DNA of 64,000 nucleotides, taken from the NCBI RefSeq assembly GCF_016411865.1, contig NZ_JAEKJA010000003.1:434001-498000 (forward strand). The letters are read 5' to 3'. The notes beneath the pieces are model-generated. The model made no database searches. It was not told where the DNA came from and saw nothing but the letters and a program-made list of their open reading frames with translations. The stretch comes from Acuticoccus mangrovi. Lineage in GTDB: Bacteria; Pseudomonadota; Alphaproteobacteria; Rhizobiales; Amorphaceae. Both the position numbers and the translations under genes were made by a program. Positions 16,732-40,573 of this stretch are shown one piece after another. Each line of letters begins with the position of its first letter. Position 1 is the first letter of the stretch.

Positions 16732-18276
16732 TCAGTCGATCACCGCCTCGATGAGGAAGGGTCCGGGCTCCTGCGTCGCCGCGGCGATCGTCCGCGTCAG
16801 CTCGGCGGCGTCCTCCACGCGCTTGCCGGGCACCCCCATGCCGCGCGCCAGCGACACGAAGTCGAGCGTCGGCCGGTCGATCTCCAGCATGTCGAGCGCG
16901 CCGCGTCCCGGATTGGCGCCCACGCGGTAGAGTTCCTGCTTCAGGATCTCGTAGCCGCGGTTGGCGAGGATCACCGTCGTCACGTTGGCGCCCTCGCGCG
17001 CCTGCGACCACAGCGCCTGAATGGTGTACATCGCCGACCCGTCCGCCTGCAGCGCCACCACCGGGCGGCCGGGACAGGCGATCGCCGCCCCGAGGCCGAG
17101 CGGCAGGCCGATGCCGATCGATCCGCCGGTGATCGCGATCCACGACATCGGCGGCGAGCCCGCGGTGGCGCCGAACACGTCGCGGCCCACGGTCACCCCC
17201 TCGTCGGTCACGATGGCGCCTTCGGGCAGCGCCGCCGCGAAGGCGGCCCCGAGTGCGGGCACCGTGATCGGCCCGGCCTGCGGTGCGACGGGCGCCGGCA
17301 CATCGACGACCCGGGGCGCTCTCACCCCCAGCCGGTCGGCAAGCGCATGCACCGCCGCCGCTCCATCCTCGTGGAGGTCGCACAGATTGATCCTCTGGCA
17401 GCTGTCCGGCAGAAGCAGGCTCGGCTTGCCCGGATAGGCGAAGAAGGCCACCGGCTGATGCGCCTCGATGAAGATCGTGTGGCGGAACTCCTTCAGCGCG
17501 TCCACCGCGAGGTCCACCGGGTAGGGCAACCGCGGCACATTCGCCCGACCGCGCCCGCGCTCCACCCGCCGGTTGGAGGTCGGCGCCATCAGCTTCGCCC
17601 CCGTCGCCGCGGCGATCCCCGAGAGGAGGCCCGTCAGCGCGGTGTCCTCGAGCACCTTGCCGCCCACGTAGATCAGCGTCGGCTCGCCGGATAGCAGCGC
17701 CTTGGCGGCCTGCTCCACGGCGCGCGGCTCGATCGGCGCCGGCCCCTGCGGCGGGATAGGTGCGGCGACCTCGCCGCCCTCGTCCCAGCCGGTGTCGGAG
17801 GGGGCGATCAGCGTCGCCACGCGCCCCGGCGCTCCCATGGCGCAGGCGAGCGCTTCGGCTCCGTCGAGGCCCAACTTCGCCGCCGAGCGGGCCACGCGGA
17901 CGAAGTCGCTGAACGGCGCCGCAGCCCCGGCGACGTCCGCCGTCAGCGGCGCGTCGAAGCTCAGATGCCGCGTCGCGTGGTCGCCCACGAGGTTCAGCAT
18001 CGGGGTGTGCGCCTTGCGCGCGTTGTGGATGTTGGCGCTGGCGTTGGCGAGGCCGGGGGCGAGATGGAGCAGCGTCACCGCCGGCACCCCGGTCATGCGG
18101 GCATAGCCGTCGGCCGCCCCCGTCACCACGCCCTCGAAAAGGCCGAGCACGCAGCGCATCAGCCCGGTTCGGTCGAGCGCGTCGACGAACTGCATCTCCG
18201 ATGTCCCGGGATTGGCGAAACAGACCCTGACGCCCGCCCCGTGAAGCGTGCGAACCAAACTTTCGGCGCCGTTCAT
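16732..18276 (-). CDS. Thiamine-diphosphate-dependent enzyme, acetolactate synthase large-subunit-like
   Basis: A 514-residue ThDP enzyme with the three-domain layout of the acetolactate synthase/benzoylformate decarboxylase superfamily. The N-terminal domain has CFANPGTSEMQFVDAL and the cofactor-activating Glu48 in LGLFEGVVTGAADGYARM. The C-terminal ThDP-binding motif runs from ADGSAMYTIQALW (Asp412) to LANRGY (Asn439). It is shorter than biosynthetic IlvB and no small regulatory subunit is adjacent, so a decarboxylase or carboligase role in catabolism is as likely as branched-chain amino acid synthesis. The ATG at 18276 has GGGGAG about five bases upstream. It is transcribed away from the molybdenum-hydroxylase operon and shares the upstream spacer with it. 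Confidence 0.85.
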   Translation of the reverse strand: MNGAESLVRTLHGAGVRVCFANPGTSEMQFVDALDRTGLMRCVLGLFEGVVTGAADGYARMTGVPAVTLLHLAPGLANASANIHNARKAHTPMLNLVGDHATRHLSFDAPLTADVAGAAAPFSDFVRVARSAAKLGLDGAEALACAMGAPGRVATLIAPSDTGWDEGGEVAAPIPPQGPAPIEPRAVEQAAKALLSGEPTLIYVGGKVLEDTALTGLLSGIAAATGAKLMAPTSNRRVERGRGRANVPRLPYPVDLAVDALKEFRHTIFIEAHQPVAFFAYPGKPSLLLPDSCQRINLCDLHEDGAAAVHALADRLGVRAPRVVDVPAPVAPQAGPITVPALGAAFAAALPEGAIVTDEGVTVGRDVFGATAGSPPMSWIAITGGSIGIGLPLGLGAAIACPGRPVVALQADGSAMYTIQALWSQAREGANVTTVILANRGYEILKQELYRVGANPGRGALDMLEIDRPTLDFVSLARGMGVPGKRVEDAAELTRTIAAATQEPGPFLIEAVID

Positions 18277-18461
18277 CGGCTCCCCCCTCATGCTCGGAGC
18301 ACCGAGGATCGGCCGCTCCCGTCACGGCCGGGCCCGCGTCCGGGTTGGTCGCCCTTCTCGCCTATCATACCGAACCGTCCTGTCGAACGTCCGCGAACGC
18401 CGCCCAGCCATCCATCTTGCTCGGATCGACAAATTCGAACGAGAGCAGCTCCAAAGACCAA

Positions 18462-18491
18462 TTGACACACCGCACAAATCGGGCATATCGT
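18462..18491 (+). promoter_or_regulatory. sigma-70-type promoter of the molybdenum hydroxylase operon
   Basis: A perfect -35 box TTGACA (18462-18467) is followed after 18 bases by TATCGT (18486-18491), four of six matches to the -10 consensus. It lies 32 bases before the GTG of the first gene of the operon. The -10 box is almost entirely inside the palindrome at 18487-18506. Confidence 0.6.
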
Positions 18492-18506
18492 TTGCATACA
18501 AACGAT
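18487..18506. promoter_or_regulatory. 20-bp palindromic operator candidate
   Basis: ATCGTTTGCATACAAACGAT: perfect 8-base arms around a four-base centre, overlapping the -10 box and the expected transcription start of the ten-gene operon. Position and symmetry are those of a repressor site for a dimeric regulator. The MarR-family protein encoded as the last gene of the same operon (30221-30640) is the obvious candidate; a GntR-type protein encoded elsewhere is the alternative. Confidence 0.65.
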
Positions 18507-18522: not shown

Positions 18523-19374
18523 GTGACGTATCTGCGACCGACGACGCTCGACGATGCCCTGGCGGCGCTCGCTGGTCCGCCGGTCACGATCCTCGCCGGC
18601 GGGACCGACGTCTTTCCCGCCCTCGGCGAGCGTCCCGCCCCGCGTCCCTATCTCGACATCTCGCGCGTCGCCGAGCTGCGGCGCATCGAGGAGAACGCCG
18701 CCGGCTGGCGGATCGGCGCCACCGCCACCTGGACCGACATCGTCAACGCCCCCCTGCCCGCCGCGTTCGACGGGTTGAAGGCCGCCGCCCGCGAGGTCGG
18801 CTCGGTGCAGATCCAGAACGCCGGCACCGTTGCCGGCAATCTGTGCAACGCCTCCCCGGCCGCCGACGGCGTGCCGGCCCTCCTCGCCCTCGGCGCCGAC
18901 GTCGAGATCGCCCGCAGCGGCGCCCGCCGCACCGTGCCGCTCGCCGAGTTCGTCACCGGCCCGCGCCGCACCGCCCTGTCGCCGGGCGAGATGGTGAGCG
19001 CGATCCTCGTCCCGCCGCACCCGCAGCACGCGGTTGGCGGCTTCGCCAAGCTCGGCGCCCGGCGCTACCTCGTCATCTCCATCGCCATGGCCTCGGCGGT
19101 GGTGGTGCCGGAGGCGGGGCGCGCCGCGAGCGCCCGCGTCGCCGTCGGCTCCTGCGGGCCCGTCGCGAGCCGCCTTCCCGCCCTCGAGGACGCGCTCGCC
19201 GGCGCTCCCCTCGAACGCCTCGCCGAGCGCGTCGCCCCGGAGCACCTCGCCCCGCTCTCGGCGATCGACGACGTGCGCGGCACCGCCCTCTACCGCCTCG
19301 ACGCCGCCGCCACCTTGCTCGCCCGTCTTCTGGGCGAGGTCGGCCGCGCCGCCCTTTCGGGAGACCGCCCATGA
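18523..19374 (+). CDS. Molybdenum hydroxylase FAD-binding (medium) subunit
   Basis: The 283-residue FAD subunit of a xanthine-dehydrogenase-family molybdenum hydroxylase. It carries electrons from the 2Fe-2S clusters to the external acceptor. FAD-binding motifs are present: TILAGGTDVFPAL near the N-terminus and QIQNAGTVAGNLCNASPAADGVPALLALGA in the middle, with LGARRYLVIS later. GTG at 18523 was chosen because CGGAG lies seven bases upstream; an in-frame TTG at 18508 falls too close to the promoter. It is the first gene of the ten-gene cluster and its stop overlaps the next start as ATGA. Confidence 0.9.
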   Translation: MTYLRPTTLDDALAALAGPPVTILAGGTDVFPALGERPAPRPYLDISRVAELRRIEENAAGWRIGATATWTDIVNAPLPAAFDGLKAAAREVGSVQIQNAGTVAGNLCNASPAADGVPALLALGADVEIARSGARRTVPLAEFVTGPRRTALSPGEMVSAILVPPHPQHAVGGFAKLGARRYLVISIAMASAVVVPEAGRAASARVAVGSCGPVASRLPALEDALAGAPLERLAERVAPEHLAPLSAIDDVRGTALYRLDAAATLLARLLGEVGRAALSGDRP

Positions 19375-22154
19375 GCGACGCCGCCCTCGCCCCGGACGCA
19401 GCCGAAGCCGCGGCCGACGCCACCGCCGCCATCGGCTTCGTCCTCAACGGCCGCCCCGTGTCGGCCGCCGTCTCGCCCGGCATGCGTCTGTCGGAGGCGC
19501 TGCGCCAGCATCTGGCGACGCGCGACGTCAAGGTGGGCTGCAACGCCGGTGACTGCGGCGCCTGCACCGTGCTTCTCGACGGGGCGGCGGTGTGCGCCTG
19601 CCTCGTCGCCACGCGCCAGGTCGAGGGCAAGCGCGTCGACACCCTCGCCGGCCTCCTCGACACCCCCGAAGGCCACCGCCTCGCCGACGCCTTCGCCCGC
19701 CACGGCGCCGCCCAATGCGGCATCTGCACGCCGGGCATGATGGTCGCCGCCGTGCCGCTCCTCGCCGCGGACCCCGCCCCCTCCGAGGCCGCCGTGAAGG
19801 ACGCCCTCGGCGGCGTCCTGTGCCGCTGCACCGGCTATCGCAAGATCATCGCCGCCGTGATGGACGCCGCGGGCCCCGCCGCCGACGCCCCCGCCGAGGC
19901 CGACGGCGTCGGCGCCCGCATCCCCCGCATCGACGGTCACGCCAAGATCCACGGCACCGAGCGCTTCGGCGACGATGTCGCCCCGGCGGACGCTCTCGTG
20001 GTGCGCGTCGTCCGCTCGCCTCACCCCCGCGCCGCCTTCACCTTCGGCGACCTCGACGACTACGCCGCCCGCCACGGCGTCACTGTGCTGACGGCGGCCG
20101 ACATTCCCGGCGTCAACCGCTTCGGCGTCATCCCGCCCTTCGCCGACCAGCCGGTGTTCGCCGAGCGCGAGGCCCGCTTCCGCGGCGAAGCCGTCGCTGC
20201 CGTCGTCGGCGAGGCCGACACCATCGCCGCACTCGACGCCTTCCCGGTGAGCTTCACGCCGCTCCCCGCCGTCACCGACCCCGCCGCTGCGCAGGCGGAG
20301 GACGCGCCGCGCCTCCACGAGAGCCGCCCCGGCAACGTCATGTGCCGCGGCCTGGTGCGCCGCGGCGACGCCGATGCCGCCCTCGCCCGCGCCGACGTCG
20401 TCGCCGAGGGCCGCTTCCGCTCCCCCTTCGTCGAGCATGCCTATATCGAGCCCGAGGCGGGCTACGCCGTCTGCGTCGGCGACCGCGTCGAGGTCTACGC
20501 CTCGACGCAGGCCCCGGTGATGGACCTCGAAGGCCTCGCCCCCATCCTCGGCCTGCCGGTCGAGAAGGTGCGCATCGTCCCGACCGCGGTGGGCGGCGGC
20601 TTCGGCTCCAAGCTCGACCTCTCGGTGCAGCCCTACATCGCCCTCGGCGCCATGAAGACCGGCCGCCCGGTGCGCCTCGCCTACTCGCGCACCGAATCCA
20701 TGCAGTCCTCGACCAAGCGCCACCCGTCGGACATCGTCGCCCGCATCGGCGCGACCCGCGACGGCCGCATCTGCGGCTTCCACTTCGAGGGCGACTTCGA
20801 CACCGGCGCCTACGCCTCGTGGGGGCCGACGGTGGCGAACCGCGTCCCCGTCCACGCCTCGGGCCCCTACCGCGTCGACGACTATCTCGCAAAGAGCGCC
20901 GGGATCCACACCCACAACCCGCCCTCGGGCGCCTTCCGCGGCTTCGGCGTGCCCCAGTCGGCGATCGCCCAGGAGGTGCTGTTCGAGGATCTCGCCGAAG
21001 CCCTCGGCATCGACCCGCTGGAGTTCCGCCGCCGCAACGCGCTCGAGAACGGCGTCCCCACCGTCTGCGGCCAGATCTTCGAGCAGGGTGTCGGCATCGG
21101 CGCCTGCTTCGACGCCCTCGCCCCGCACTTCGCCCGCGCCCGCGCCGAGGCCGAGGCGTTCAACGCCGCGGCCCGGGCCGCCGGCTCGCCGCTGCGCCGC
21201 GGGGCGGGCCTCGCCGCCGGCTGGTATGGCTGCGGCAACACCTCGATGGCGAACCCCTCCACCATCCGCTCCGGCGTGACGCCGGAGGGCCGCATCGTCC
21301 TCCACCAGGGGGCGATGGACATCGGCCAGGGCGCCAACACCGTCATCACCCAGATCTTCGCCGCCGCCCTCGGCGTACCCGTCGCGGCGGTCGCCCTCGT
21401 CGGCCCCGACACCGACGTCACCCCCGACGCCGGCAAGACCTCCGCCTCGCGCCAGACGCTGATCTCGGGCAACGCCGCCCGCCTGTCGGGCGCCGCCCTG
21501 CGCGCCATGATCCTGCGCCAGGCGAACGCCGGCGACGACGCCCGCATCGAGCCCACCGCCGCCGGCCTCGTGATCCACGACGGCGCCGCCTCGCGCCCGC
21601 TCGACCTCGCCGCGCTTCCCGTCGACCGCCTCGGCTACACCCTTTCCGCCGAGGAGAGCTGGGACCCGCCCACCGCGCCGATGGACGAGAACGGCCAGGG
21701 GGTCCCCTACGCCGTGTTCGGCTACGCCGCCCACCTCTGCGAGCTCACCGTCGACACCGCCCTCGGCACCGTGCGGCTCGAAAAATTCACCGCCGCCCAC
21801 GACGTCGGCAAGGCGATCAACCCGCTCCTCGTCGAAGGCCAGGTGGAAGGGGGCATCGCCCAGGGCGCCGGCATGGCGCTCATGGAGGCCTATATCCCCG
21901 GCCAAACCGAGGACCTCCACAACTATCTGATCCCGACGATCGGCGACATGCCGCCGGTCGAGACCCTCATCATCGAGGAGCCGGACGCCCACGGCCCGCA
22001 CGGCGCCAAGGGCCTCGGCGAGCATTGCCTCATCCCCACGGCTCCCGCGATCCTCAACGCCATCCGCCACGCGAGCGGCGCGCGCCTCACCACGGTGCCG
22101 GCCACTCCGTCGGCGGTCCGCGCCGCCATCCGCGCGGCCGAGGAGGCCCAATGA
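19371..22154 (+). CDS. Molybdenum hydroxylase: fused 2Fe-2S and molybdopterin subunits
   Basis: A 927-residue fusion. Residues 20-165 form the small iron-sulfur subunit: Cys57, Cys62, Cys65 and Cys77 for the plant-type 2Fe-2S cluster, and Cys116, Cys119, Cys151 and Cys153 (CGIC...CRC) for the second cluster. From about residue 175 the molybdopterin-binding large subunit follows, with VGGGFGSK, SGAFRGFG, QGAMDIGQGANTVI and the catalytic Glu884 in GAKGLGEH near the C-terminus. The family hydroxylates electron-poor rings or aldehydes with water as oxygen source. The motifs do not reveal the substrate; the neighbours suggest a nicotinate-like N-heterocycle. Start and stop both overlap the neighbouring genes by ATGA, so the operon is translationally coupled. 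No dedicated maturation chaperone is seen nearby. Confidence 0.93.
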   Translation: MSDAALAPDAAEAAADATAAIGFVLNGRPVSAAVSPGMRLSEALRQHLATRDVKVGCNAGDCGACTVLLDGAAVCACLVATRQVEGKRVDTLAGLLDTPEGHRLADAFARHGAAQCGICTPGMMVAAVPLLAADPAPSEAAVKDALGGVLCRCTGYRKIIAAVMDAAGPAADAPAEADGVGARIPRIDGHAKIHGTERFGDDVAPADALVVRVVRSPHPRAAFTFGDLDDYAARHGVTVLTAADIPGVNRFGVIPPFADQPVFAEREARFRGEAVAAVVGEADTIAALDAFPVSFTPLPAVTDPAAAQAEDAPRLHESRPGNVMCRGLVRRGDADAALARADVVAEGRFRSPFVEHAYIEPEAGYAVCVGDRVEVYASTQAPVMDLEGLAPILGLPVEKVRIVPTAVGGGFGSKLDLSVQPYIALGAMKTGRPVRLAYSRTESMQSSTKRHPSDIVARIGATRDGRICGFHFEGDFDTGAYASWGPTVANRVPVHASGPYRVDDYLAKSAGIHTHNPPSGAFRGFGVPQSAIAQEVLFEDLAEALGIDPLEFRRRNALENGVPTVCGQIFEQGVGIGACFDALAPHFARARAEAEAFNAAARAAGSPLRRGAGLAAGWYGCGNTSMANPSTIRSGVTPEGRIVLHQGAMDIGQGANTVITQIFAAALGVPVAAVALVGPDTDVTPDAGKTSASRQTLISGNAARLSGAALRAMILRQANAGDDARIEPTAAGLVIHDGAASRPLDLAALPVDRLGYTLSAEESWDPPTAPMDENGQGVPYAVFGYAAHLCELTVDTALGTVRLEKFTAAHDVGKAINPLLVEGQVEGGIAQGAGMALMEAYIPGQTEDLHNYLIPTIGDMPPVETLIIEEPDAHGPHGAKGLGEHCLIPTAPAILNAIRHASGARLTTVPATPSAVRAAIRAAEEAQ

Positions 22155-23689
22155 GCACCCCCGACACCCCCGCAAAGCCCGACAAGATCCGCTGCGACGC
22201 CTGCCCCGTCCTCTGCTACATCGCCGAGGGCCGCACCGGCGCCTGCGACCGCTACGCCAATCACGGCGGCGAGCTCGTCCGCCTCGATCTCCTCACCGTG
22301 ATCGAGGAGACCGCGGACAAGGGCGCCAAGATGGTCCCCTTCCTCGACGCCGGCGGCGAGTGGGACGGCGACCTCGTGCACGCCTCCCGCCCCTTCGTCA
22401 CCGCCGTCGGCGCCGGCACCACCTACCCGGACTATAAGCCCGCCCCCTTCATCATCTCCCAGCCGACGGACGACGCCGACATGGTGACCGTCGTCACCGA
22501 AGGCATCTTCAGCTACTGCGGCGTCAAGGTGAAGATCGACACCGACCGCCACATCGGCGAGGAGCGCGCCGTCGTGCGCGTCGACGGCGAGCCCATCGGC
22601 CACGTCATGACCTCCGAATACGGCTCGCGCATGCTCTCGCTCGGCGGCGTCGACCACCTCACCGGCGGCTCCAAGAAGGAAGGCCGCGTCACCTGCGCCG
22701 CCCTCCTCGCCCTCTGCAACCGCGAGCCGGTCGAGATGACCATCGACGACGGCGCCAGCCTCGTCGTCCAGGCCGGCAAGCCGCCGATCATCGATGGCGT
22801 GACCGAGGCGCGCATGCGCGTCGGCTGCGGCTCGGCCACCATCGGCATGTTCGCCCGCCAGTGGCTCGGCCTCGTCGACGAGGTGGTGGTGGTCGACGAC
22901 CACATCACCGGCGTCCTCTCCGAGCACCAGTCGGGCAAGCTCCTCGGCATCCCGCCCACCGGCATCAAGATGAAGGGCCGCCGCTCTACCCCCGGACGCT
23001 ACTTCCAGGTGGCGAACCCCGGCACCTCCTGGGGCGGCACCGACATCGAGGACCCGCTCGCGATCCTCGGACCCTTCGACCCTAAGGTCGCCTGGCCGGG
23101 CCTCACCCTCTTCATGGTCTCCACCACCGGCGAGCACGCCGCCTACTACGTGCTCGACGACGCCCTCGTCCCGCAGCCCGCACCGCTCACGCCGGCGCTC
23201 CAGGCCGTCGCCGAGCGCATCGCGGAGAACTGCGAGCCCGCCACCTGCTCCGTCCTCTTCATGGGCGGCGCCGGCGGCTCGCTGCGCGCCGGCGTCACCG
23301 AGAACCCGGTGGGCCTCACCCGCTCCGTCAAGGCCGCCCTCACCAAGGTCACCTGCGGCGGCGCCGACACCTATGTCTGGCCGGGCGGCGGCATCACCGT
23401 GATGGTCGATGTCCTCGACATGCCCACCAACTCGTTCGGCTACGTGCCCACCCCCGCCCTCGTCGCCCCCATCGAGTTCACCATGGCGCGCGACGACTAC
23501 GCCGCGCTCGGCGGCCACGTCGGCGAGATCCAGCCGCTCGACGACGTCCTCGCCAGCGAGCGCCGCCGCGGCCTGCGCGTCACCCGCCGCGCCGCCCCGG
23601 GCGAAGCGCCGCAGGACGTCGCGGCCCCCTCGACGGGCGACGAGCCCGCCGCCGCCCACACCCCGAGCCACCCCGGAAAAGCGGCCTGA
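22151..23689 (+). CDS. 6-hydroxynicotinate reductase-like iron-sulfur protein
   Basis: A 512-residue protein resembling 6-hydroxynicotinate reductase, the enzyme that in nicotinate fermentation reduces the ring formed by nicotinate hydroxylase. An N-terminal ferredoxin-like cysteine set is visible: Cys15, Cys18, Cys22 and Cys32 in CDACPVLC...TGAC. The body has repeated Gly-rich segments (RVGCGSATIGMFARQW, LFMGGAGGSLRAG, TKVTCGGADTYVWPGGG) of the kind that hold flavin or further clusters. The C-terminal 40 residues are low complexity. Placement directly behind a molybdenum hydroxylase with ATGA overlap strongly supports a consecutive hydroxylate-then-reduce pathway. The family name comes from my recognition of the sequence; the substrate is not proven. 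Confidence 0.78.
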   Translation: MSTPDTPAKPDKIRCDACPVLCYIAEGRTGACDRYANHGGELVRLDLLTVIEETADKGAKMVPFLDAGGEWDGDLVHASRPFVTAVGAGTTYPDYKPAPFIISQPTDDADMVTVVTEGIFSYCGVKVKIDTDRHIGEERAVVRVDGEPIGHVMTSEYGSRMLSLGGVDHLTGGSKKEGRVTCAALLALCNREPVEMTIDDGASLVVQAGKPPIIDGVTEARMRVGCGSATIGMFARQWLGLVDEVVVVDDHITGVLSEHQSGKLLGIPPTGIKMKGRRSTPGRYFQVANPGTSWGGTDIEDPLAILGPFDPKVAWPGLTLFMVSTTGEHAAYYVLDDALVPQPAPLTPALQAVAERIAENCEPATCSVLFMGGAGGSLRAGVTENPVGLTRSVKAALTKVTCGGADTYVWPGGGITVMVDVLDMPTNSFGYVPTPALVAPIEFTMARDDYAALGGHVGEIQPLDDVLASERRRGLRVTRRAAPGEAPQDVAAPSTGDEPAAAHTPSHPGKAA

Positions 23690-23855
23690 TGCGCTCGCCC
23701 GCCGGCCGTCGCATCACGTCCTTCCGACCCCCTTCGGCCGGCCGACGGCTTGACGCGGCCGGCTCCACCCTCATCATCGCGCCCGACGGTCCGCGTCGGC
23801 GCCTGCGAGGATGCTGCGCGGGCGAACCAACCCGCCAGCCCGGAGAGGTCTCCCC

Positions 23856-24716
23856 ATGACCGAACCCACCGCCTCGCTGCTTCCCGATGGGCGCCTCCAT
23901 CTCAATCACGGCCCCATCGACCTCGTGATCAGCGCCGACGGAGCCCCCGAGGCGGTGGAGCTCGCCTTCGAAGCCGCCGCCGGCCGCTTCGCCACCATCC
24001 TGGTGGAGCTCGTCGACGAGCTGCCCCTGCTGCGCTGGCCCGCCCGCGCCGACACCCACGCCACCGGCCTCGTCGCGAGCCGCATGGTCGCCGCCGTCGT
24101 GCCCCACGCCGAAGCGACCTTCATCACCCCGATGGCCGCCGTCGCCGGCGCCGTCGCCGACGAGATCCTCGACGTGATGACCGCCGCCGCGCCGCTCACC
24201 CGCGTGTTCGTGAACAACGGCGGCGACATCGCCATCCATCTCTCCGGCGGCCAGCGCGCTCATGCCCGCCTCGCCGCCCACGACGGCACCGAAATCGGCC
24301 GCGCCGCCATCGTGTCGGGCGACGGGGTCGGCGGCATCGCCACCTCCGGCCGCGACGGCCGCTCCTTCTCCCTCGGCATCGCCGACGCCGTCACCGTGCT
24401 CGCCGCGAGCGCCGCCGAGGCCGACGCCGCCGCCACCCTCATCGCCAACGCCGTCGACCTTGCCGACCACCCCGCCGTCACCCGCGCTCCCGCCGACACG
24501 CTCGATCCCGACTCCGACCTCGGCAGCCGCCTCGTCACCACCCACTGCGGCCCGCTGCGCGACGACGAGAAGCGCCTCGCCCTCGCCGACGGCGCCGCCA
24601 CCGCCCGCCGCATGATGGCGGCCGGCCTCATCCGCGGCGCGGCCCTCTTCCTGCAGGGCCGCTCCCGCATCCTTGGCGGCGGTCGCCAGATCGTCCGCGA
24701 GCGCCCCGAAGAATAG
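23856..24716 (+). CDS. UPF0280 family protein (ApbE-like fold)
   Basis: A 286-residue member of UPF0280, a family of unknown function distantly related to ApbE flavin transferases. Visible features include the N-terminal GRLHLNHGPIDLVI, a conserved MAAVAGAVADEILDVM segment and RVFVNNGGDIAIHL, then DGVGGIATSGRDGRSFSLGIADAVTVLA. GGAGAGG seven bases upstream fixes the ATG at 23856. It follows the reductase-like gene after a 166-base spacer with no other gene. In this setting it might modify or supply a flavin to one of the redox proteins, but that is conjecture. Confidence 0.78.
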   Translation: MTEPTASLLPDGRLHLNHGPIDLVISADGAPEAVELAFEAAAGRFATILVELVDELPLLRWPARADTHATGLVASRMVAAVVPHAEATFITPMAAVAGAVADEILDVMTAAAPLTRVFVNNGGDIAIHLSGGQRAHARLAAHDGTEIGRAAIVSGDGVGGIATSGRDGRSFSLGIADAVTVLAASAAEADAAATLIANAVDLADHPAVTRAPADTLDPDSDLGSRLVTTHCGPLRDDEKRLALADGAATARRMMAAGLIRGAALFLQGRSRILGGGRQIVRERPEE

Positions 24717-24724
24717 GACCGACG

Positions 24725-25309
24725 ATGCCCGCCGATATCCGTAAGATCACCGTCATCCTCGACGAGACCCACAAGGAGATGGGCCGCATCATCGCCCCGC
24801 CCACGCGGCGCGCGGCGGCCATCGCGGTCATCGCCAACCCGTTCGCCGGCCGCTACCAGCACGACCTCTCCGAGCTGATCGAGATCGGTGCCGAGCTCGG
24901 CGCGATGCTCGGCCGGCGCTGCGTCGCCGCCCTCGGCATCGCCCCCGAAGCCGCCCAGTCCTACGGCAAGGCGGCGATGGTGGGCGAGGCGGGCGAGCTC
25001 GAGCACGCCGCCGCCATCCTCCACCCCAAGCTCGGCGCCCCGCTGCGCGCCGAGGTCGGCGGCGGCGCCGCCCTCGTCCCCTCCTCCAAGAAGATGGGCA
25101 GCCCCGGCCAGGTCCTCGACATCCCCCTCGGCCACAAGGACGCCGCCTACGTCCGCTCCCACTTCGACGGCATGGAGGTGCGCCTCAACGACGCCCCCCG
25201 CGCCGGCGAGATCATGGTCGCCGTCGCCGTCACCGACAGCGGCCGCCCGCTGCCGCGCGTCGGCGGCCTGAAGCACGATGAGATCAAGGGCGAAGATGGC
25301 CTTCGCTGA
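24725..25309 (+). CDS. DUF1185 / 'amino acid synthesis' family protein
   Basis: A 194-residue protein of the PF06684 group (labelled amino acid synthesis protein; the label has little biochemical support). Typical parts are IRKITVILDETHKEMGR, an AVIANPFAGRYQ segment, GKAAMVGEAGELEHAAAILHPKLG, and PSSKKMGSPGQVLDIPLGHKDAAYVRSHFDGMEV. Known structures of the family show a small alpha/beta fold without an established reaction. It starts eight bases after the UPF0280 stop. Co-occurrence with a ring hydroxylase and reductase suggests an enzyme acting on a ring-derived intermediate; this is inference. Confidence 0.78.
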   Translation: MPADIRKITVILDETHKEMGRIIAPPTRRAAAIAVIANPFAGRYQHDLSELIEIGAELGAMLGRRCVAALGIAPEAAQSYGKAAMVGEAGELEHAAAILHPKLGAPLRAEVGGGAALVPSSKKMGSPGQVLDIPLGHKDAAYVRSHFDGMEVRLNDAPRAGEIMVAVAVTDSGRPLPRVGGLKHDEIKGEDGLR

Positions 25310-25352
25310 CCCCACCCCGGCCCCAACCCCTGGCCCTCGAAGAGGAGTAGCC

Positions 25353-26567
25353 ATGCTGACACGTCGCGGACTTCACAAGGCGCTCGCCGCCGTTCTCGTC
25401 GCCACGCCGTTCGCCGCCTCGGCGGCGCTCGCCCAGGACCCCATCAAGATCGGCGAGATCAACTCCTACACCCGCATGACCGCCTTCACCGACCCCTACA
25501 AAAAGGGGTGGGAGCTGGCGCTCGAGGAGATCAACGCCGCCGGCGGCGTCGGCGGCCGCCCGCTCGAGGTCATCAGCCGCGACGACACCGGCGATCCCGC
25601 CACCGCCATCCGCATCGCCGACGAGCTCGTCAACCGCGACCACGTCGCGCTGATCTTCGGCACCTTCCTGTCGAACATCGGCCTCGCCGTGTCCGACTTC
25701 GCCAAGCAGAACGAGGTGCTGTTCATCGCCTCCGAGCCGCTCACCGACGCCATCGTCTGGTCGGCCGGCAACAAGTACACCTACCGCCTGCGCCCCTCCA
25801 CCTACATGCAGGCCGCGATGCTCGCCGCCGAGGCCGCCAAGACCGACGCCGTCAAGTGGGCGACCATCGCCCCCAACTACGCCTACGGCACCGACGCGGT
25901 GGAGGCCTTCAAGGCGAACCTCAAGAAGCTGAAGCCGGAGGTGGAGTTCGTCGAGGAGCAGTGGCCGACCCTCTTCAAGATCGACGCCGGCTCGGCCGTG
26001 CGCGCCCTCGAAGGCGCCAAGCCCGACGGCATCTACAACGTCACCTTCGGCGGCGACCTCGCGAAGTTCGTCCGCGAAGGCTCGCTGCGCTACCTCTTCG
26101 ACGATCGCGTGGTGGTCGGCCTGTTGACGGGTGAGCCCGAATATCTCGATCCCCTCGGCGACGAGACCCCCGACGGCTGGATCGTCACCGGCTACCCCGG
26201 CCTCGCCGTCGACACCCCCGCCCACGAGGCGTTCGAGAAGGCCTATGTCGACAAGTGGGGCGAGGCGCCGAAGACCGGCTCCCTCGTCGGCTACAACTCG
26301 ATGCTGACGGTCAAGGCGCTGCTCGAGGCCTCCCCCTCGCTCGAGACCGAGGACCTCGTCGCCACCATGGCGGGCCTCAAGGTCCCGACGAGCCCGACGG
26401 GCCCGTTCTTCTACCGGGCCGCCGACCACCAGTCGACGATGGGCGCCTATGTCGGCAAGACCGCCCTCGTCGACGGCAAGCCCGGTATGGTCGACTGGTT
26501 CTACGCCCCCGGCGAGGACTTCCTGCCGAGCGAGGAGGAAGCCGCCAAGCTGCGCCCGGCCGAGTAG
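25353..26567 (+). CDS. Branched-chain-type ABC transporter substrate-binding protein
   Basis: A 404-residue periplasmic binding protein of the LivK/Leu-Ile-Val class. The signal peptide starts MLTRRGLHKALAAVLVATPF with a Tat-like twin arginine and should be cut after ALA-Q. The mature protein begins DPIKIGEINSYTRMTAF and shows two Rossmann-like lobes (LIFGTFLSNIGLAVSDFA; WATIAPNYAYGTDAVEAFKANLKK). Binding proteins of this class transport amino acids but in soil and marine Alphaproteobacteria often bind aromatic acids. GAGGAG five bases upstream fixes the ATG at 25353. It is separated from the permease gene by an unusual spacer full of hairpins that may raise its level relative to the permease. 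Confidence 0.92.
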   Translation: MLTRRGLHKALAAVLVATPFAASAALAQDPIKIGEINSYTRMTAFTDPYKKGWELALEEINAAGGVGGRPLEVISRDDTGDPATAIRIADELVNRDHVALIFGTFLSNIGLAVSDFAKQNEVLFIASEPLTDAIVWSAGNKYTYRLRPSTYMQAAMLAAEAAKTDAVKWATIAPNYAYGTDAVEAFKANLKKLKPEVEFVEEQWPTLFKIDAGSAVRALEGAKPDGIYNVTFGGDLAKFVREGSLRYLFDDRVVVGLLTGEPEYLDPLGDETPDGWIVTGYPGLAVDTPAHEAFEKAYVDKWGEAPKTGSLVGYNSMLTVKALLEASPSLETEDLVATMAGLKVPTSPTGPFFYRAADHQSTMGAYVGKTALVDGKPGMVDWFYAPGEDFLPSEEEAAKLRPAE

Positions 26568-26583
26568 CCGTCCCCTTCCCACC

Positions 26584-26613
26584 CCCCGCTCCGGCCGAGG
26601 CGTCGGAGCGGGG
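26584..26613 (+). terminator. hairpin directly after the binding-protein gene
   Basis: Perfect 10-base arms CCCCGCTCCG (26584-26593) and CGGAGCGGGG (26604-26613) around a ten-base loop, 17 bases after the stop codon. No T-run. Probably a partial terminator or a 3'-end stabiliser that lets the binding protein be made in excess of the membrane components. Confidence 0.5.
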
Positions 26614-26616
26614 CAC

Positions 26617-26690
26617 GGGAGGGCTTCGGCCGCGTCAAGGACGCCGCAGGCGCCCGCAGGGCTTGTCCTTGACGCGGCCGAAGCCCTCCC
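26617..26690. repeat. long perfect inverted repeat (26-bp arms)
   Basis: The arms at 26617-26642 and 26665-26690 are perfect reverse complements over 26 bases, beginning GGGAGGGCTTCGGCC, with a 22-base loop. This is much longer than needed for a terminator and lies between two genes of one operon. It may be part of a dispersed intergenic palindromic element. Confidence 0.85.
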
Positions 26691-26701
26691 CAGCCTTGAA
26701 A

Positions 26702-26750
26702 AGGGTCCCAGGCAAGAGGACCGCACCGCGGTCATCTTTCCTGGAACCCT
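26702..26750. repeat. imperfect inverted repeat (23-bp arms)
   Basis: Arms 26702-26724 and 26728-26750 match at 20 of 23 positions around a three-base centre; the left arm starts AGGGTCCCAGG. The three mismatches suggest an older palindrome than the one just upstream. Confidence 0.75.
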
Positions 26751-26775
26751 GCCCATCGGCGAGATGGAGGGGAGC

Positions 26776-26798
26776 ACGAGGGGAGGAACGCCCCTCGT
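26776..26798. repeat. short inverted repeat before the permease gene
   Basis: ACGAGGGG (26776-26783) and CCCCTCGT (26791-26798) form an 8-bp stem with a seven-base loop, followed by CTTTCTTA. It is the fourth hairpin of the 318-base spacer. A decamer GCCGGCGCGC also occurs twice in the last 70 bases of the spacer. I see no gene in it. Confidence 0.6.
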
Positions 26799-26885
26799 CT
26801 TTCTTAGAAAGCAATGCCGGCGCGCAGCGCCGTCCGAACCCACACCGCATCCACGCCGGCGCGCCCCGCCAACCCCGGAGCATCC

Positions 26886-28741
26886 ATGGGCTTTTATTTC
26901 GCGCAGCTCCTCACCGGTCTCGCCAACGCCTCCTCGCTGTTCCTGATCGCCTGTGGCCTGTCGATCATCTTCGGCGTCACGCGCATCGTGAACTTCGCCC
27001 ACGGCTCGCTCTATATGCTCGGCGCCTACATCGCCTACACGCTCGTCACCACGATCCACGCTGGGCCGTTCGGCTTCTGGGCGAGCGTCCTGTTGTCGGC
27101 CGCCGCCGTCGCCCTCGTCGGCGCGGTCATCGAGATCCTCATCCTGCGCCGCATCTACCGCGCGCCCGAGCTCTTCCAGCTCGTCGCGACCTTCGGCGTC
27201 CTCCTCATCATCCAGGACGCCACCCTCGCCATCTGGGGCGCGGAGGACCTCCTCGGCCCCCGCGCCCCCGGCCTCGACCGGGCGGTGCGCATCTTCGGCG
27301 AGCCGATCCCCGAATACGACCTCGCCCTCATCGTCATCGGCCCGGTGGTGCTCGGCCTCATCACCCTCGTCTTCCGCAAGACGCGCTGGGGCGTCCTCGT
27401 GCGCGCCGCCACCCAGGACCGCGAGATGGTCGGCGCCCTCGGCGTCAACCAGCGCTGGCTCTTCACCTCCGCCTTCATGCTCGGTGCCTTCCTCGCCGGG
27501 CTCGGCGGCGCCCTCCAGGTGCCGCGCGAGTCGGTCAGCCTCCTGATGGACCTCTCCGTCATCGGCGAAGCGTTCGTCGTCGTCGTCATCGGCGGCATGG
27601 GCTCGGTCGGCGGCGCCTTCGTCGCGGCGATCATCATCTCCGTGCTCAACGCCTTCGGCGTCCTCGTCTTCCCGCAGATCTCGCTGATCCTGCCCTTCCT
27701 CGTCATGGCCATCGTGCTCGTCGTGCGACCCTACGGCCTCTTCGGCAGCCCCGCCTCCGCCCACGGCGCGCCGCCGGTGCCCGAAGCCCCGATGCGCCCC
27801 CTCAACCAAGCCGGCATCGTCGCCATGACGCTGGTGGTCGTCGCCTTCGCCGCTCTGCCGGTGGTCGACGACGGCTTCATCCTCGTCCTCGCCGTCGACC
27901 TCTTCGTCGCCGTGCTCTTCGCCGCGAGCCTTCACCTCATCATGGGGGTGGGCGGCATGGTCTCGTTCGGCCACGCCGCCTATTTCGGCCTCGGCGCCTA
28001 CGCCGCGGCGCTCGCCGTCAAAACGCTCGGCCTGCCGATGCTGCCGGCGATGCTCTTCGGCCCGCTCGCGGCGGCGCTGGGCGCGGCGGTGTTCGGCTGG
28101 TTCTGCGTGCGCCTCTCCGGCGTCTATCTCGCGATGCTCACCCTCGCCGCGGCGCAGATCCTGTGGGGCGTCACCTTCCAGTGGCAGTCGGTGACGGGGG
28201 GCGACGACGGCATCCTCGGCGTCTGGCCGGCGAGCTGGGCGAGCCGCGAGGTCTATTTCTACCTCGCCCTCGCCGTCACCGTCGTCGGCCTCGCCCTCAT
28301 CCGCCGCATCGCCAACTCCCCGTTCGGCTACACGCTGCGCGGCGGCCGCGATTCGCCCACCCGCGCCGAGGCGATCGGCATCGACCTCAAGGCCCACCAG
28401 TGGCTCGGCTTCATCATCGCCGGCGCCCTCGCCGGGGTCGCCGGCGTCCTCTTCGCCTTCGCCAAGGGCTCGGTGTTCCCCGAGACGCTCGCCATCGGCC
28501 ACTCCATCGACGCCCTCATCATGGTGCTCCTCGGCGGCGTCCAGTCCCTCCTCGGGCCGCTCTTCGGCGCCACCGCCTTCGTCCTCATCGAGGACTGGGT
28601 GACCCGGCTCGACTACTGGCGCTTCATCTTCGGCGCCATCATCCTCCTCATCTGCATCGCCGCGCCCGACGGCATCGCCGGCGGCCTCTCCCGCCTCTGG
28701 CGCCTGGTGCGGCCAGGCACGCCGCGCTCCGGGAGGCCGGC

Positions 28742-28745
<4 letters not shown>
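26886..28745 (+). CDS. Branched-chain-type ABC permease, fused LivH-LivM
   Basis: A 619-residue inner-membrane protein joining both permease subunits of a branched-chain-type importer. Residues 1 to about 295 are LivH-like (FGVTRIVNFAHGSLYMLGAY, then VVVIGGMGSVGGAFVAA). After a short Pro/Ala linker (GAPPVPEAPMRP) the LivM-like half starts with eight or so membrane spans, including GVGGMVSFGHAAYFGLGAYAA and IMVLLGGVQSLLGPLFGA. In E. coli these are two proteins of about 300 and 425 residues. GGAG six bases upstream supports the ATG at 26886. The stop overlaps the next ATG (ATGA). Confidence 0.92.
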
Positions 28746-29510
<765 letters not shown>

Positions 29511-29518
<8 letters not shown>

Positions 29519-30224
29519 CGATCTCCTCGCCGTCAGCGGCCTCAACACCTACTACGGCGGCGCCCACATCCTCTCCGACGTCGCCTTCGCGATCGGCGGC
29601 AACGAGGTGGTCGCCCTGCTCGGGCGCAACGGCGCCGGCAAGTCCACCACCATCAAGTCGGTGATGGGGCTGGTGCGCCCCCGCTCCGGCTCGGTCGTCT
29701 ACCAGGGCGAGGAGATCGCCGGCGACGAGCCCTACCGCGTCTGCCGCCGCGGCATCGGCTACGTGCCGGAGGAGCGCCGCGTGTTCTCCGAGCTGACGGT
29801 GGAGGAAAATCTCGAGGTCGGCCGCCGGCCGCCGCGCGCCGACGCGTCGGAGTGGACGCCGGAGCGCCTCTACGCCCTCTTCCCCAACCTCGCCGAGCGC
29901 CGCCGCCATCCCGCCGGCCGCATGTCGGGCGGCGAGCAGCAGATGCTCACCATCGCCCGCACCCTCATGGGCAATCCCCGCCTCGTCCTGCTCGACGAGC
30001 CGTCGGAGGGCATCGCCCCCCTGATCGTCGAGCAGATGGCGATGGTCATCAAGGAGCTGAAGCGCGAAGGTCTCGCCGTGCTCATCTCCGAGCAGAACCT
30101 TCACTTCGCCCGAATCGTGTCCGACCGCGCCGTGATCATCGAAAAGGGCGCGGTGCGCTTCACCGGCACCTTCGCCGACCTCGACGCCAACCCCGACATC
30201 GCCCAGGCGACCCTCGCCCTATGA
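29511..30224 (+). CDS. Branched-chain-type ABC ATPase, LivF-like
   Basis: A 237-residue second ATPase of the importer. Walker A GRNGAGKST, Q-loop and GIGYVPEERRVFSELTVEEN, the signature MSGGEQQML, Walker B VLLDEPSEGIAP and the switch His in NLHFARIV (a relaxed form of the H-loop) are all present. GYVPEERR is characteristic of LivF. The eight-base overlap with livG-like and the ATGA overlap with the MarR gene show tight coupling to the end of the operon. Confidence 0.93.
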
Positions 30225-30640
30225 CCGCTACCGACGCCTACGTTCTCGACGACCAGATCGGCTACCTGATGCGCCTCGCGAGCCAGCGGCACACCGCGAT
30301 CTTCGCCGAGCACATGGACGACCTCACCCCCACCCAGTTCGCCGTCCTCGCCCGCCTCGCAGAGGTGGGGCCGTCGTCGCAGAACCAGCTCGGCCGTCTC
30401 GTCGCGATGGACGTCGCCACCGTCAAGGGCGTCGTCGACCGGCTCAAGGCGAAGGACCTCATCGTCTTCTCCGCCGACGAGAAGGACGGTCGCCGCCGCG
30501 TCATCGCGCTGTCGGAGAAGGGCCGCGCCCGCCTTCCCGAGCTTCACCGCATGGGTGCCTCGATCACCGAGGACACCCTCTCCCCCCTGACCGCACGCGA
30601 GCGCGACACCCTCATCCGCCTCATGCGCAAGCTCACCTGA
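30221..30640 (+). CDS. MarR family transcriptional regulator
   Basis: A 139-residue winged-helix regulator. The DNA-recognition region reads SQNQLGRLVAMDVATVKGVVDRLKAKDLIVFSADEKDGRRRVIALSEKG in sequence, split here for display as helix SQNQLGRLV, recognition helix TVKGVVDRLK and the wing DEKDGRRRVIAL. MarR proteins usually repress catabolic operons until an aromatic ligand binds. Being the last gene of the operon with an ATGA overlap, it most probably autoregulates the whole cluster from the palindrome at 18487-18506, though that is not shown by sequence. Confidence 0.9.
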   Translation: MTATDAYVLDDQIGYLMRLASQRHTAIFAEHMDDLTPTQFAVLARLAEVGPSSQNQLGRLVAMDVATVKGVVDRLKAKDLIVFSADEKDGRRRVIALSEKGRARLPELHRMGASITEDTLSPLTARERDTLIRLMRKLT

Positions 30641-40417: not shown

Positions 40418-40477
40418 TCGCTCCTCGCTCGCGCGGGCGCGCGACGAGCTCGGCGCGCATGGGGAAGAAGAACAATT

Positions 40478-40573
40478 AGGAGGCCGGCGAAATGACCCGG
40501 ACCGGAATCGTTAGGGCTGCTTCGTTCCCGACCTGACCCGGTTGGCGAGCGGCCCGTCCACCGCCGACCTCCC
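40478..40573 (-). ncRNA. ffs: Signal recognition particle RNA (4.5S, small bacterial type)
   Basis: On the minus strand the conserved apical core reads GGTCAGGTCGGGAAC then GAAGCAGCCCTAA: the asymmetric loop recognised by Ffh and a GGAA tetraloop closed by C-G pairs. The outer ends pair as GGAGGTCGGCG with CGCCGGCCTCC (one G-U), giving a hairpin of about 96 nt, the usual size of the small bacterial SRP RNA. It lies upstream of dnaX on the same strand, and a good promoter sits just before it. Exact ends are set from the terminal stem and may be off by a few bases. Confidence 0.9.

What the first reader, a model, noticed from the sequence alone, without database searches (positions are those of the whole stretch)
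18523..30640. Ten-gene module: Mo-hydroxylase, 6-hydroxynicotinate-reductase-like protein, UPF0280, DUF1185, ABC importer and MarR
The genes are on one strand with six overlaps of 1-8 bases, so they form one coupled operon. Seen directly: an FAD subunit, a fused 2Fe-2S/molybdopterin subunit, an iron-sulfur reductase-like protein, two proteins of unassigned function, a four-component branched-chain-type importer and a regulator. Known from the families: molybdenum hydroxylases add OH to electron-poor rings, and 6-hydroxynicotinate reductase reduces the hydroxylated ring. Inference: import, hydroxylation and ring reduction of a nicotinate-like or other N-heterocyclic acid. The later steps known from nicotinate fermentation (enamidase and beyond) are absent, so either the pathway continues elsewhere or the substrate differs. 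UPF0280 and DUF1185 have no known reaction and could supply the missing ring-opening or cofactor steps.
Basis: partly seen in the sequence, partly recalled or inferred. Interest (0 to 1): 0.72.

Follow-up and report, generated by a model that had tools for sequence, protein, structure and literature searches.

The report
Nicotinate breakdown operon, split regulon
This is a bacterial operon that most likely imports and breaks down vitamin B3 (nicotinate); the ring-opening enzyme it seemed to lack sits elsewhere in the same genome beside the same DNA switch, and its two genes of unknown function can each be tied to a particular step.

Summary
The ten genes are there, on one strand, with six overlaps (five of 4 bases, one of 8). 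They form the aerobic nicotinate/THON (tetrahydro-6-oxonicotinate) cluster already described for Azorhizobium and Bradyrhizobiaceae (PMC3511419), so the nicotinate reading is supported. "Later steps absent" is wrong for the genome: an enamidase (77% to the cluster-associated family) and a ferredoxin reductase lie divergently on another contig. Their intergenic region holds the only two other copies, in 5.46 Mb, of the core of the palindrome before the window operon.

New inferences. (1) UPF0280 goes with 6-hydroxynicotinate reductase (HNR) perfectly: 77 of 77 HNR genomes, 0 of 310 others (three weak matches set aside). The 41 best PDB matches of its model are a UPF0280 relative and ApbE-type flavin transferases. 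It is best read as HNR's flavin-handling partner, but ApbE's catalytic His and target motif are missing. (2) The window's DUF1185 goes with the enamidase (34 of 35 genomes), so it probably acts on the ring-opened product. (3) Many HNR clusters without enamidase carry HyuA/HyuB oxoprolinase-type genes; HyuA and enamidase never share a locus (0 of 157).

No biochemistry was done. A new member of a known kind, with testable roles for two unknown families.

The parts
18487..18506 (.). Perfect palindrome ATCGTTTG-CATA-CAAACGAT, predicted MarR operator, 16 bases before the first gene
   Evidence: only match with up to 3 mismatches in 64 kb, shuffles mean 0.03; core GTTWGN4CWAAC occurs at 3 places in the 5.46 Mb genome, here and twice between enamidase and ferredoxin reductase.
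18523..19374 (+). FAD subunit of molybdenum hydroxylase (GTG start)
   Evidence: PF00941 E 1.3e-43, PF03450.
19371..22154 (+). Fused [2Fe-2S]/molybdopterin subunit, predicted nicotinate 6-hydroxylase
   Evidence: PF00111, PF01799, PF01315, PF02738, PF20256; matches three subunits of a solved nicotinate dehydrogenase (3hrd), though aldehyde oxidoreductases (1dgj, 1sij) score higher.
22151..23689 (+). 6-hydroxynicotinate reductase (HNR)-like protein; conserved to about 23557
   Evidence: Alignments A1 and A3: invariant Cys, HLTGG and DHITG blocks. Many homologues annotated 6-hydroxynicotinate reductase.
23856..24716 (+). UPF0280 protein, ApbE-type fold, predicted flavin-handling partner of HNR
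   Evidence: NF003322 370 bits (cut-off 290); model pLDDT 94.8; PDB hits 1-41 are 2o34 and ApbE/FmnB/Ftp; 77/0/0/310 with HNR.
24713..25309 (+). DUF1185/PF06684 protein, type A, predicted to act on the enamidase product
   Evidence: PF06684 E 1.3e-71; 2qtp E 1.3e-95; with enamidase 34/1/4/348.
25353..26567 (+). Periplasmic binding protein of the importer
   Evidence: PF13458; 225 of 374 residues identical to 3i45.
26568..26885 (.). Intra-operon spacer with a dispersed palindromic repeat
   Evidence: 11 other places in the own genome at 71-90% (40 of 100 candidates scored), plus self and palindromic hits; folding z-score -8.15.
26886..28745 (+). Fused double permease of branched-chain type
   Evidence: PF02653, two stretches.
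28742..29518 (+). ABC ATPase (LivG-like)
29511..30224 (+). ABC ATPase (LivF/UrtE-like)
30221..30640 (+). MarR-family regulator
   Evidence: PF12802, PF01047.

Best explanation
The operon is the upper part of an aerobic nicotinate pathway of the THON type. The ABC importer brings nicotinate in. The molybdenum hydroxylase makes 6-hydroxynicotinate. HNR, fed by reduced ferredoxin through the ferredoxin reductase on contig C27, reduces it to 1,4,5,6-tetrahydro-6-oxonicotinate (THON). The enamidase, also on C27, opens THON to 2-formylglutarate and ammonia. The MarR protein represses both loci through one operator and is released by a pathway compound. UPF0280 is a flavin-handling partner (loading or attaching flavin) needed to make active HNR. 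DUF1185 type A acts just after ring opening, most likely on the formyl-dicarboxylate (decarboxylation to the semialdehyde) or on its enamine precursor. Shown: gene content, order, conservation, operator sites, model fold of UPF0280, co-occurrence. Inferred: all reactions, the substrate, repression, the flavin role. My estimates: pathway and substrate 0.8; UPF0280 as HNR flavin partner in some form 0.6; DUF1185 acting on the ring-opened product 0.5, specifically as a decarboxylase 0.3.
For: PMC3511419 (figure legend passage and section 13): such a cluster in A. caulinodans and in SG-6C, which degrades nicotinate with 6-hydroxynicotinate as transient. A. caulinodans uses nicotinate as C and N source (PMC2650096 passages). 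The enamidase family of these clusters matches solved ENAMIDASE 2vun, E 6.7e-103; the own genome has it on C27 at 77%, with the ferredoxin reductase beside it at 72%. Operator core at only three places in the genome, all at these two loci; three random sites would fall in the two 232-base stretches with probability 6e-13, a figure computed after seeing the sites. HNR/UPF0280 77/0/0/310. UPF0280 in the fetched stretch of 76 of 77 and 78 of 80 loci, 154 of 154 on HNR's strand, 150 of 154 within 400 bases; the three loci without it have it elsewhere in the genome (G253; L066, L087). UPF0280 model: PDB hits 1-41 are 2o34 and ApbE/FmnB/Ftp; profile match to E. coli ApbE E 1.2e-4, probability 55%, 95 columns. 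Enamidase/DUF1185-A 34/1/4/348; a DUF1185 gene lies within 1.4 kb of 10 of 18 remoter enamidase-like genes, four of them in genomes without HNR (positions). TgnF, a DUF1185 homologue, is said to stimulate succinic semialdehyde oxidation (PMC7913881 passage, citing a paper not held).
Against: No activity, ligand or growth test was possible. The hydroxylase scores higher against aldehyde oxidoreductases than against nicotinate dehydrogenase, and no specificity residue was tested. That 3i45 binds nicotinate and that E. barkeri HNR has a covalent flavin are recalled only; no held paper was found. HNR lacks ApbE's target motif (strict 0 of 82, relaxed 8 of 82), and UPF0280 has no His at the position of ApbE's catalytic His (0 of 33). 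44 of 77 HNR genomes have no enamidase and 10 of 77 no DUF1185 above the cut; 4 genomes have DUF1185-A without enamidase and 1 the reverse. The operator is enriched only near the window's clade: 38 sites against 8 for a backward control in 80 loci, but 7 against 6 in 76 other loci. In the own genome the backward control has 5 sites, so placement, not number, is the evidence. One plasmid has UPF0280 without HNR. HcdD, another DUF1185 protein, showed no stimulating effect.
Confidence: 0.8

Rival explanations
1. The operon handles another electron-poor N-heterocyclic acid (for example a substituted nicotinate or a related ring acid) by the same hydroxylation, reduction and lactam-opening chemistry.
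For: In relatives the hydroxylase is exchangeable (FAD/Mo type, or a 1187-aa Mo-cytochrome c type in 15 of 81 loci), transporters are exchangeable, and some clusters carry Rieske oxygenases, so substrates may vary. The best solved relatives of the hydroxylase are not nicotinate enzymes.
Against: SG-6C, with the conserved cluster, degrades nicotinate through 6-hydroxynicotinate (PMC3511419). The window HNR falls in a set of 22 rows of which 18 have enamidase (its branch is long and its exact place unsure), and an enamidase carries the same operator core.
Confidence: 0.15
2. UPF0280 is not a maturation factor but a stable FAD-binding subunit or electron-transfer partner of HNR.
For: Perfect pairing and closeness and ApbE-type fold, but no catalytic His and no target motif in HNR.
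Against: I recall E. barkeri HNR as a single-subunit enzyme with its own flavin; not checked here.
Confidence: 0.25
3. DUF1185 type A is an enamine deaminase acting between amide hydrolysis and 2-formylglutarate, rather than a decarboxylase.
For: DUF1185 has a chorismate-mutase-like fold (PMC2954203, parts 1-3 of 5 read), a fold that I recall is shared with RidA-type imine deaminases. DUF1185 also sits in many HyuA/B clusters, where a lactam hydrolase would leave an enamine.
Against: E. barkeri enamidase is described as doing both steps itself (PMC9304392 passage), so the step would be redundant just where DUF1185-A is most tightly linked.
Confidence: 0.25
4. A branched-chain amino-acid module, as the DUF1185 structure paper suggested from gene neighbourhoods.
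For: Branched-chain-type importer; PMC2954203 drew that inference.
Against: That name is only the family of the importer; hydroxylase and HNR are the usual companions.
Confidence: 0.02

Closest known systems
Nicotinate degradation cluster of Azorhizobium caulinodans (AZC_2804-2790) and Bradyrhizobiaceae SG-6C (PMC3511419, Fig. 4 legend and section 13 seen)
   Same: Hydroxylase, HNR, ABC importer and two conserved unknown proteins in one cluster; aerobic; THON route.
   Different: The paper counts the first three steps as inside the cluster; here the third (enamidase) and the ferredoxin reductase are on another contig, joined by the operator core. One DUF1185 copy here; 72 of the loci compared have two. 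The figure itself could not be seen.
Eubacterium barkeri nicotinate fermentation (passages in PMC9304392, and PMC5746545; original paper not held)
   Same: HNR-type reduction to THON and enamidase opening to 2-formylglutarate.
   Different: Anaerobic; hydroxylase is a selenium enzyme with a split molybdopterin part; later steps differ, as I recall.
ApbE/FmnB/Ftp FAD:protein FMN transferases (PMC12052999, passages)
   Same: Overall fold; ATSG and ADxxAT blocks line up, with catalytic Ser and Asp kept.
   Different: No His at the general-base position, about 11 residues shorter there, partner lacks D-x-x-[ST]-G-A-[ST].
DUF1185 structures BB2672 (3byq) and SPO0826 (2qtp), PMC2954203
   Same: Homologue, E 1.3e-95 to 2qtp; several His, Arg and Glu residues invariant in both types.
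   Different: The paper proposed amino-acid metabolism; here a pathway partner (enamidase) is proposed.
Sagittula stellata E-37 plasmid cluster, NZ_CP155730.1
   Same: HNR, UPF0280, DUF1185, importer genes and MarR in the same order.
   Different: Has HyuA/HyuB, an adjacent ferredoxin reductase, a ring-hydroxylating oxygenase and two DUF1185 copies; hydroxylase on the other strand; no enamidase in the stretch shown.

Membership tests
THON-type nicotinate pathway | XDH-family hydroxylase with FAD, two [2Fe-2S] and Mo parts | tested here: met
   proteins 1 and 2.
THON-type nicotinate pathway | 6-hydroxynicotinate reductase homologue | tested here: met
   homologues annotated as 6-hydroxynicotinate reductase; PMC3511419 puts its SG-6C relative at 42% to the E. 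barkeri enzyme. The E. barkeri sequence itself was not compared here.
THON-type nicotinate pathway | Enamidase in the genome | tested here: met
   G000:C27, 77% to the cluster family that matches 2vun.
THON-type nicotinate pathway | Enamidase inside the cluster | tested here: not met
   other contig. Elsewhere too it can lie apart: 33 of 77 HNR genomes have it, 21 of 77 within the stretch held.
THON-type nicotinate pathway | Turnover of nicotinate, 6-hydroxynicotinate and THON | not testable with these tools
   Needs assays.
THON-type nicotinate pathway | Lower route from 2-formylglutarate by glutarate | not tested
   No search for glutaryl-CoA enzymes in the own genome was made.
ApbE flavin transferase superfamily (UPF0280) | ApbE fold | tested here: met
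   ApbE-type hits at E 2.5e-5 to 1e-2, probability 0.87-1.00; TM-scores modest, 0.33-0.53.
ApbE flavin transferase superfamily (UPF0280) | Catalytic Ser and Asp positions | tested here: met
   S164 and D190 in 33 of 33, aligned to the E. coli ApbE residues whose spacing equals that of Ser241-His257-Asp285 of V. cholerae ApbE.
ApbE flavin transferase superfamily (UPF0280) | Catalytic His general base | tested here: not met
   aligned with L173, which is L, M, F or R in 33 of 33.
ApbE flavin transferase superfamily (UPF0280) | Partner with D-x-x-[ST]-G-A-[ST] acceptor | tested here: not met
   0 of 82 HNR reading frames.
ApbE flavin transferase superfamily (UPF0280) | Covalent flavin transfer | not testable with these tools
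   Needs mass spectrometry.
PF06684 (DUF1185) | Profile match | tested here: met
Nicotinate-binding importer | Binding of nicotinate | not testable with these tools
   Only 60% identity to 3i45 shown; its ligand is recalled.

The most novel reading that the evidence does not exclude
UPF0280 is a flavin-loading or flavin-attaching enzyme of a new branch of the ApbE superfamily. It serves only HNR, at a non-canonical site (candidates: the HLTGG and DHITG blocks) and without ApbE's His base. HyuA/HyuB oxoprolinase-type enzymes are ATP-dependent THON lactamases that have repeatedly replaced the enamidase.
Probability: 0.35. Interest if true: 0.7.

Novelty: new member of a known kind. Interest (0 to 1): 0.52.

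Why it matters
Two families of unknown function each get one predicted partner and step, testable by co-expression and mass spectrometry. UPF0280 would be a new kind of flavin-handling protein. HyuA/HyuB would be a second, ATP-using way to open the reduced nicotinate ring, and would explain how many of the 44 of 77 sampled HNR genomes without enamidase could manage. It also shows that a pathway judged incomplete from one window can be completed by a distant locus beside the same operator core.

Tried and rejected
HNR structure: model pLDDT 69, no PDB match at E 0.001 by fold, none of note by profile; no conclusion drawn. Classical ApbE flavinylation of a DHLTGGS motif in HNR: rejected; the Asp is D in 6 of 32 rows and the strict motif is in 0 of 82. 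DUF1185 as replacement for enamidase: rejected; the window's type is most tightly linked to genomes that have enamidase. UPF0280 as ring opener: rejected; it is present in all HNR genomes, with and without enamidase. Operator as a universal mark of these clusters: rejected; 7 sites against 6 control sites in 76 loci. Rfam scan of the window at gathering scores: only the small SRP RNA. Ligand of 3i45 and covalent flavin of HNR: looked for in papers, none held. Not found in print, in this library only: no held paper contains the word UPF0280 and three contain DUF1185, none of them seen to link it to nicotinate (one read in parts, one by passages, one as a listing); pathway searches.

Counts to read with care. 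The 387 genomes are species of one class, not independent. Three weak UPF0280 genomes (E about 1e-4) were left out of the 77. Enamidase orthologues were taken at 63% identity or more and DUF1185-A at 68% or more, cuts that I set after seeing the lists. In one search at most 4, at most 8 candidates per genome were scored. The HNR tree is a quick tree of 75 rows (L186 and L187 left out) with 23 of 72 inner branches open; it needs at least 9 enamidase/Hyu changes, the 18 rows with neither not counted. A HyuB-like gene (33% identity, 219 bits, under my cut of 300) lies in one locus of an enamidase genome (L160).

Full report
Observation. The ten genes exist at the stated coordinates on the + strand, from the GTG at 18523 to 30640. 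Six junctions overlap: five by 4 bases and one by 8. There are two real gaps: about 166 bases before UPF0280 and 318 bases between the binding protein and the permease. Family scans give an FAD subunit, a fused 2Fe-2S/molybdopterin subunit, UPF0280, PF06684 (DUF1185), a Peripla_BP_6 binding protein, a permease with two BPD_transp_2 stretches, two ATPases and a MarR regulator. The HNR protein matched no Pfam or NCBIfam model at E 0.001; it is named from homologues.

What it is. PMC3511419 (figure legend passage and section 13; [quoted passage not shown] SG-6C degrades nicotinate, and 6-hydroxynicotinate appears on the way. In these and in 76 further genomes HNR, UPF0280, DUF1185, a hydroxylase, an importer and MarR recur together in varying subsets. 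The window is therefore a member of this kind.

The missing step is not missing. The family of about 395 aa that often flanks these clusters matches the solved ENAMIDASE 2vun at E 6.7e-103. The window's own genome has it on contig C27 at 77% identity, divergent from a ferredoxin reductase-like gene at 72% (PF00970 and PF00175). The window operon is preceded by a perfect palindrome, ATCGTTTG-CATA-CAAACGAT, at 18487-18506. Its core, GTTWGN4CWAAC, occurs at three places in the 5.46 Mb genome: here and twice in the enamidase/ferredoxin-reductase intergenic region. A control pattern read backwards occurs at five places, so the number is not the evidence; the placement is (6e-13 for three random sites in the two stretches, reckoned after the fact). 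Among the 80 closest loci the core occurs 38 times against 8 for the backward control, by my reading mostly before hydroxylase, HNR, enamidase, MarR or Rieske genes. Among 76 loci of the class sample it is not enriched (7 against 6), so the operator belongs to the window's own branch. That MarR binds it is inferred.

UPF0280 belongs to HNR. In one set of 387 genomes of the window's class, 77 have HNR and the same 77 have a strong UPF0280; none of the other 310 does, three weak matches at E about 1e-4 set aside. UPF0280 is in the fetched stretch of 76 of 77 and 78 of 80 loci. In all 154 it is on HNR's strand, in 150 within 400 bases, median gap 72. The three loci without it have it elsewhere in the genome. 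On plasmids, 26 records have HNR and 27 have UPF0280, the 26 shared. The one extra, in Hydrogenophaga sp. BPS33, lies beside an IS1071 transposase in a repeated fragment with MarR and Rieske genes, which looks like a cut-off piece. The AlphaFold model (pLDDT 94.8) matches 2o34 first (a DUF375 protein and sequence relative) and then only ApbE, FmnB and Ftp flavin transferases to rank 41; later ranks have E 0.4 or more. A profile comparison with E. coli ApbE gives E 1.2e-4, probability 55%, over 95 columns, and lines up the ATSG and ADxxAT blocks. The E. coli Ser-His-Asp spacing (16, 28) equals that of the V. cholerae triad in PMC12052999 (passages). UPF0280 keeps the Ser and Asp in 33 of 33 but has no His there in any of 33, and ApbE's target motif is in 0 of 82 HNRs. 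I recall that E. barkeri HNR carries a covalent flavin, but no held paper shows it. I therefore commit to 'flavin-handling partner of HNR' and leave the chemistry open.

DUF1185 belongs to the ring-opening side. The window copy is of a type (A, 67% identity or more in the loci) found in 34 of 35 genomes with enamidase and in 4 of 352 without. A second type (B, 42-58%) is nearer to UPF0280 than type A in 70 of 72 loci with two copies; the window operon has only A. Remoter enamidase-like genes (35-44%) have a DUF1185 gene within 1.4 kb in 10 of 18 places, four in genomes without HNR (positions). One is in the own genome on C1, next to what I read as a TRAP transporter and some 5.5 kb from a HyuA-like gene. 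PMC7913881 (passage) says that the DUF1185 homologue TgnF stimulates succinic semialdehyde oxidation in trigonelline breakdown, another pathway in which, as I recall, an enamide is hydrolysed to a formyl acid; the same passage says that no such effect was seen for HcdD. Hence the proposal that DUF1185 acts on the product of enamide opening; decarboxylation is my first guess.

A second way to open the ring. 44 of 77 HNR genomes lack the enamidase. HyuA genes (PF01968, PF05378) occur in 26 of these 44 neighbourhoods and in 0 of 33 with enamidase; HyuB (PF02538) in 20 of 44 and 1 of 33 (Fisher 5e-9 for HyuA). By tblastn with set score cuts no locus of 157 has both enamidase and HyuA/B; 66 have the first, 30 the second, 61 neither. 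The two states change at least nine times on a quick HNR tree. As THON is a lactam and Hyu proteins are oxoprolinase relatives, a swap of ring-opening enzymes is the simplest reading; it was not tested by chemistry.

Other parts. The importer's binding protein is 60% identical to 3i45; I recall Rhodospirillum rubrum as its source and nicotinate in that crystal, but no call shows either. Some relatives (15 of 81 loci) carry a molybdenum-cytochrome c protein (1187 aa in the one scanned) instead of the hydroxylase, an architecture that I recall from NicB of Pseudomonas putida. Ferredoxin supply genes, including 2-oxoacid:ferredoxin oxidoreductase in about eight loci, occur in several clusters, in keeping with a ferredoxin-dependent HNR.

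Verdict. A known kind of system and a new member, with a clear split regulon and two unknown families tied to single partners. The biochemical claims are inferences.

Noticed in passing
window 26568-26885: The spacer between binding protein and permease holds a dispersed repeat found at 11 or more other places in the genome at 71-90%, with a very strong hairpin (z -8.15). It could set the ratio of binding protein to permease.
   Followed up: partly
L107 9395-11325 (own genome C1): A second DUF1185 plus enamidase-like pair, divergent from what reads as a TRAP transporter, with a HyuA-like gene some 5.5 kb away: probably another lactam-opening pathway of unknown substrate.
   Followed up: partly
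L046, L173, L181, L194: A VanA-like Rieske oxygenase recurs in these clusters (13 of 81 loci, 13 of 77) and in five or six of the first 13 has the operator core before it; the window lacks it. Its role is unknown.
   Followed up: no
window 16732-18291 (-): Divergent from the operon is a thiamine-diphosphate enzyme (PF02776, PF02775); no link to the pathway was seen.
   Followed up: no
L192 (Hydrogenophaga sp. BPS33 plasmid): A segment with UPF0280, MarR, Rieske and transporter-binding genes is repeated between IS1071 copies; four UPF0280 places in the record.
   Followed up: no
L191 (genome of L066, Acidisphaera sp. L21): The only UPF0280 match there has an in-frame TAG, while the HNR frame is open: a natural case for asking whether HNR depends on UPF0280.
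   Followed up: no
L187 (genome G083): HNR there is in two pieces in adjoining frames, with UPF0280 still beside it.
   Followed up: no
window 40476-40572 (-): Small signal recognition particle RNA.
   Followed up: no
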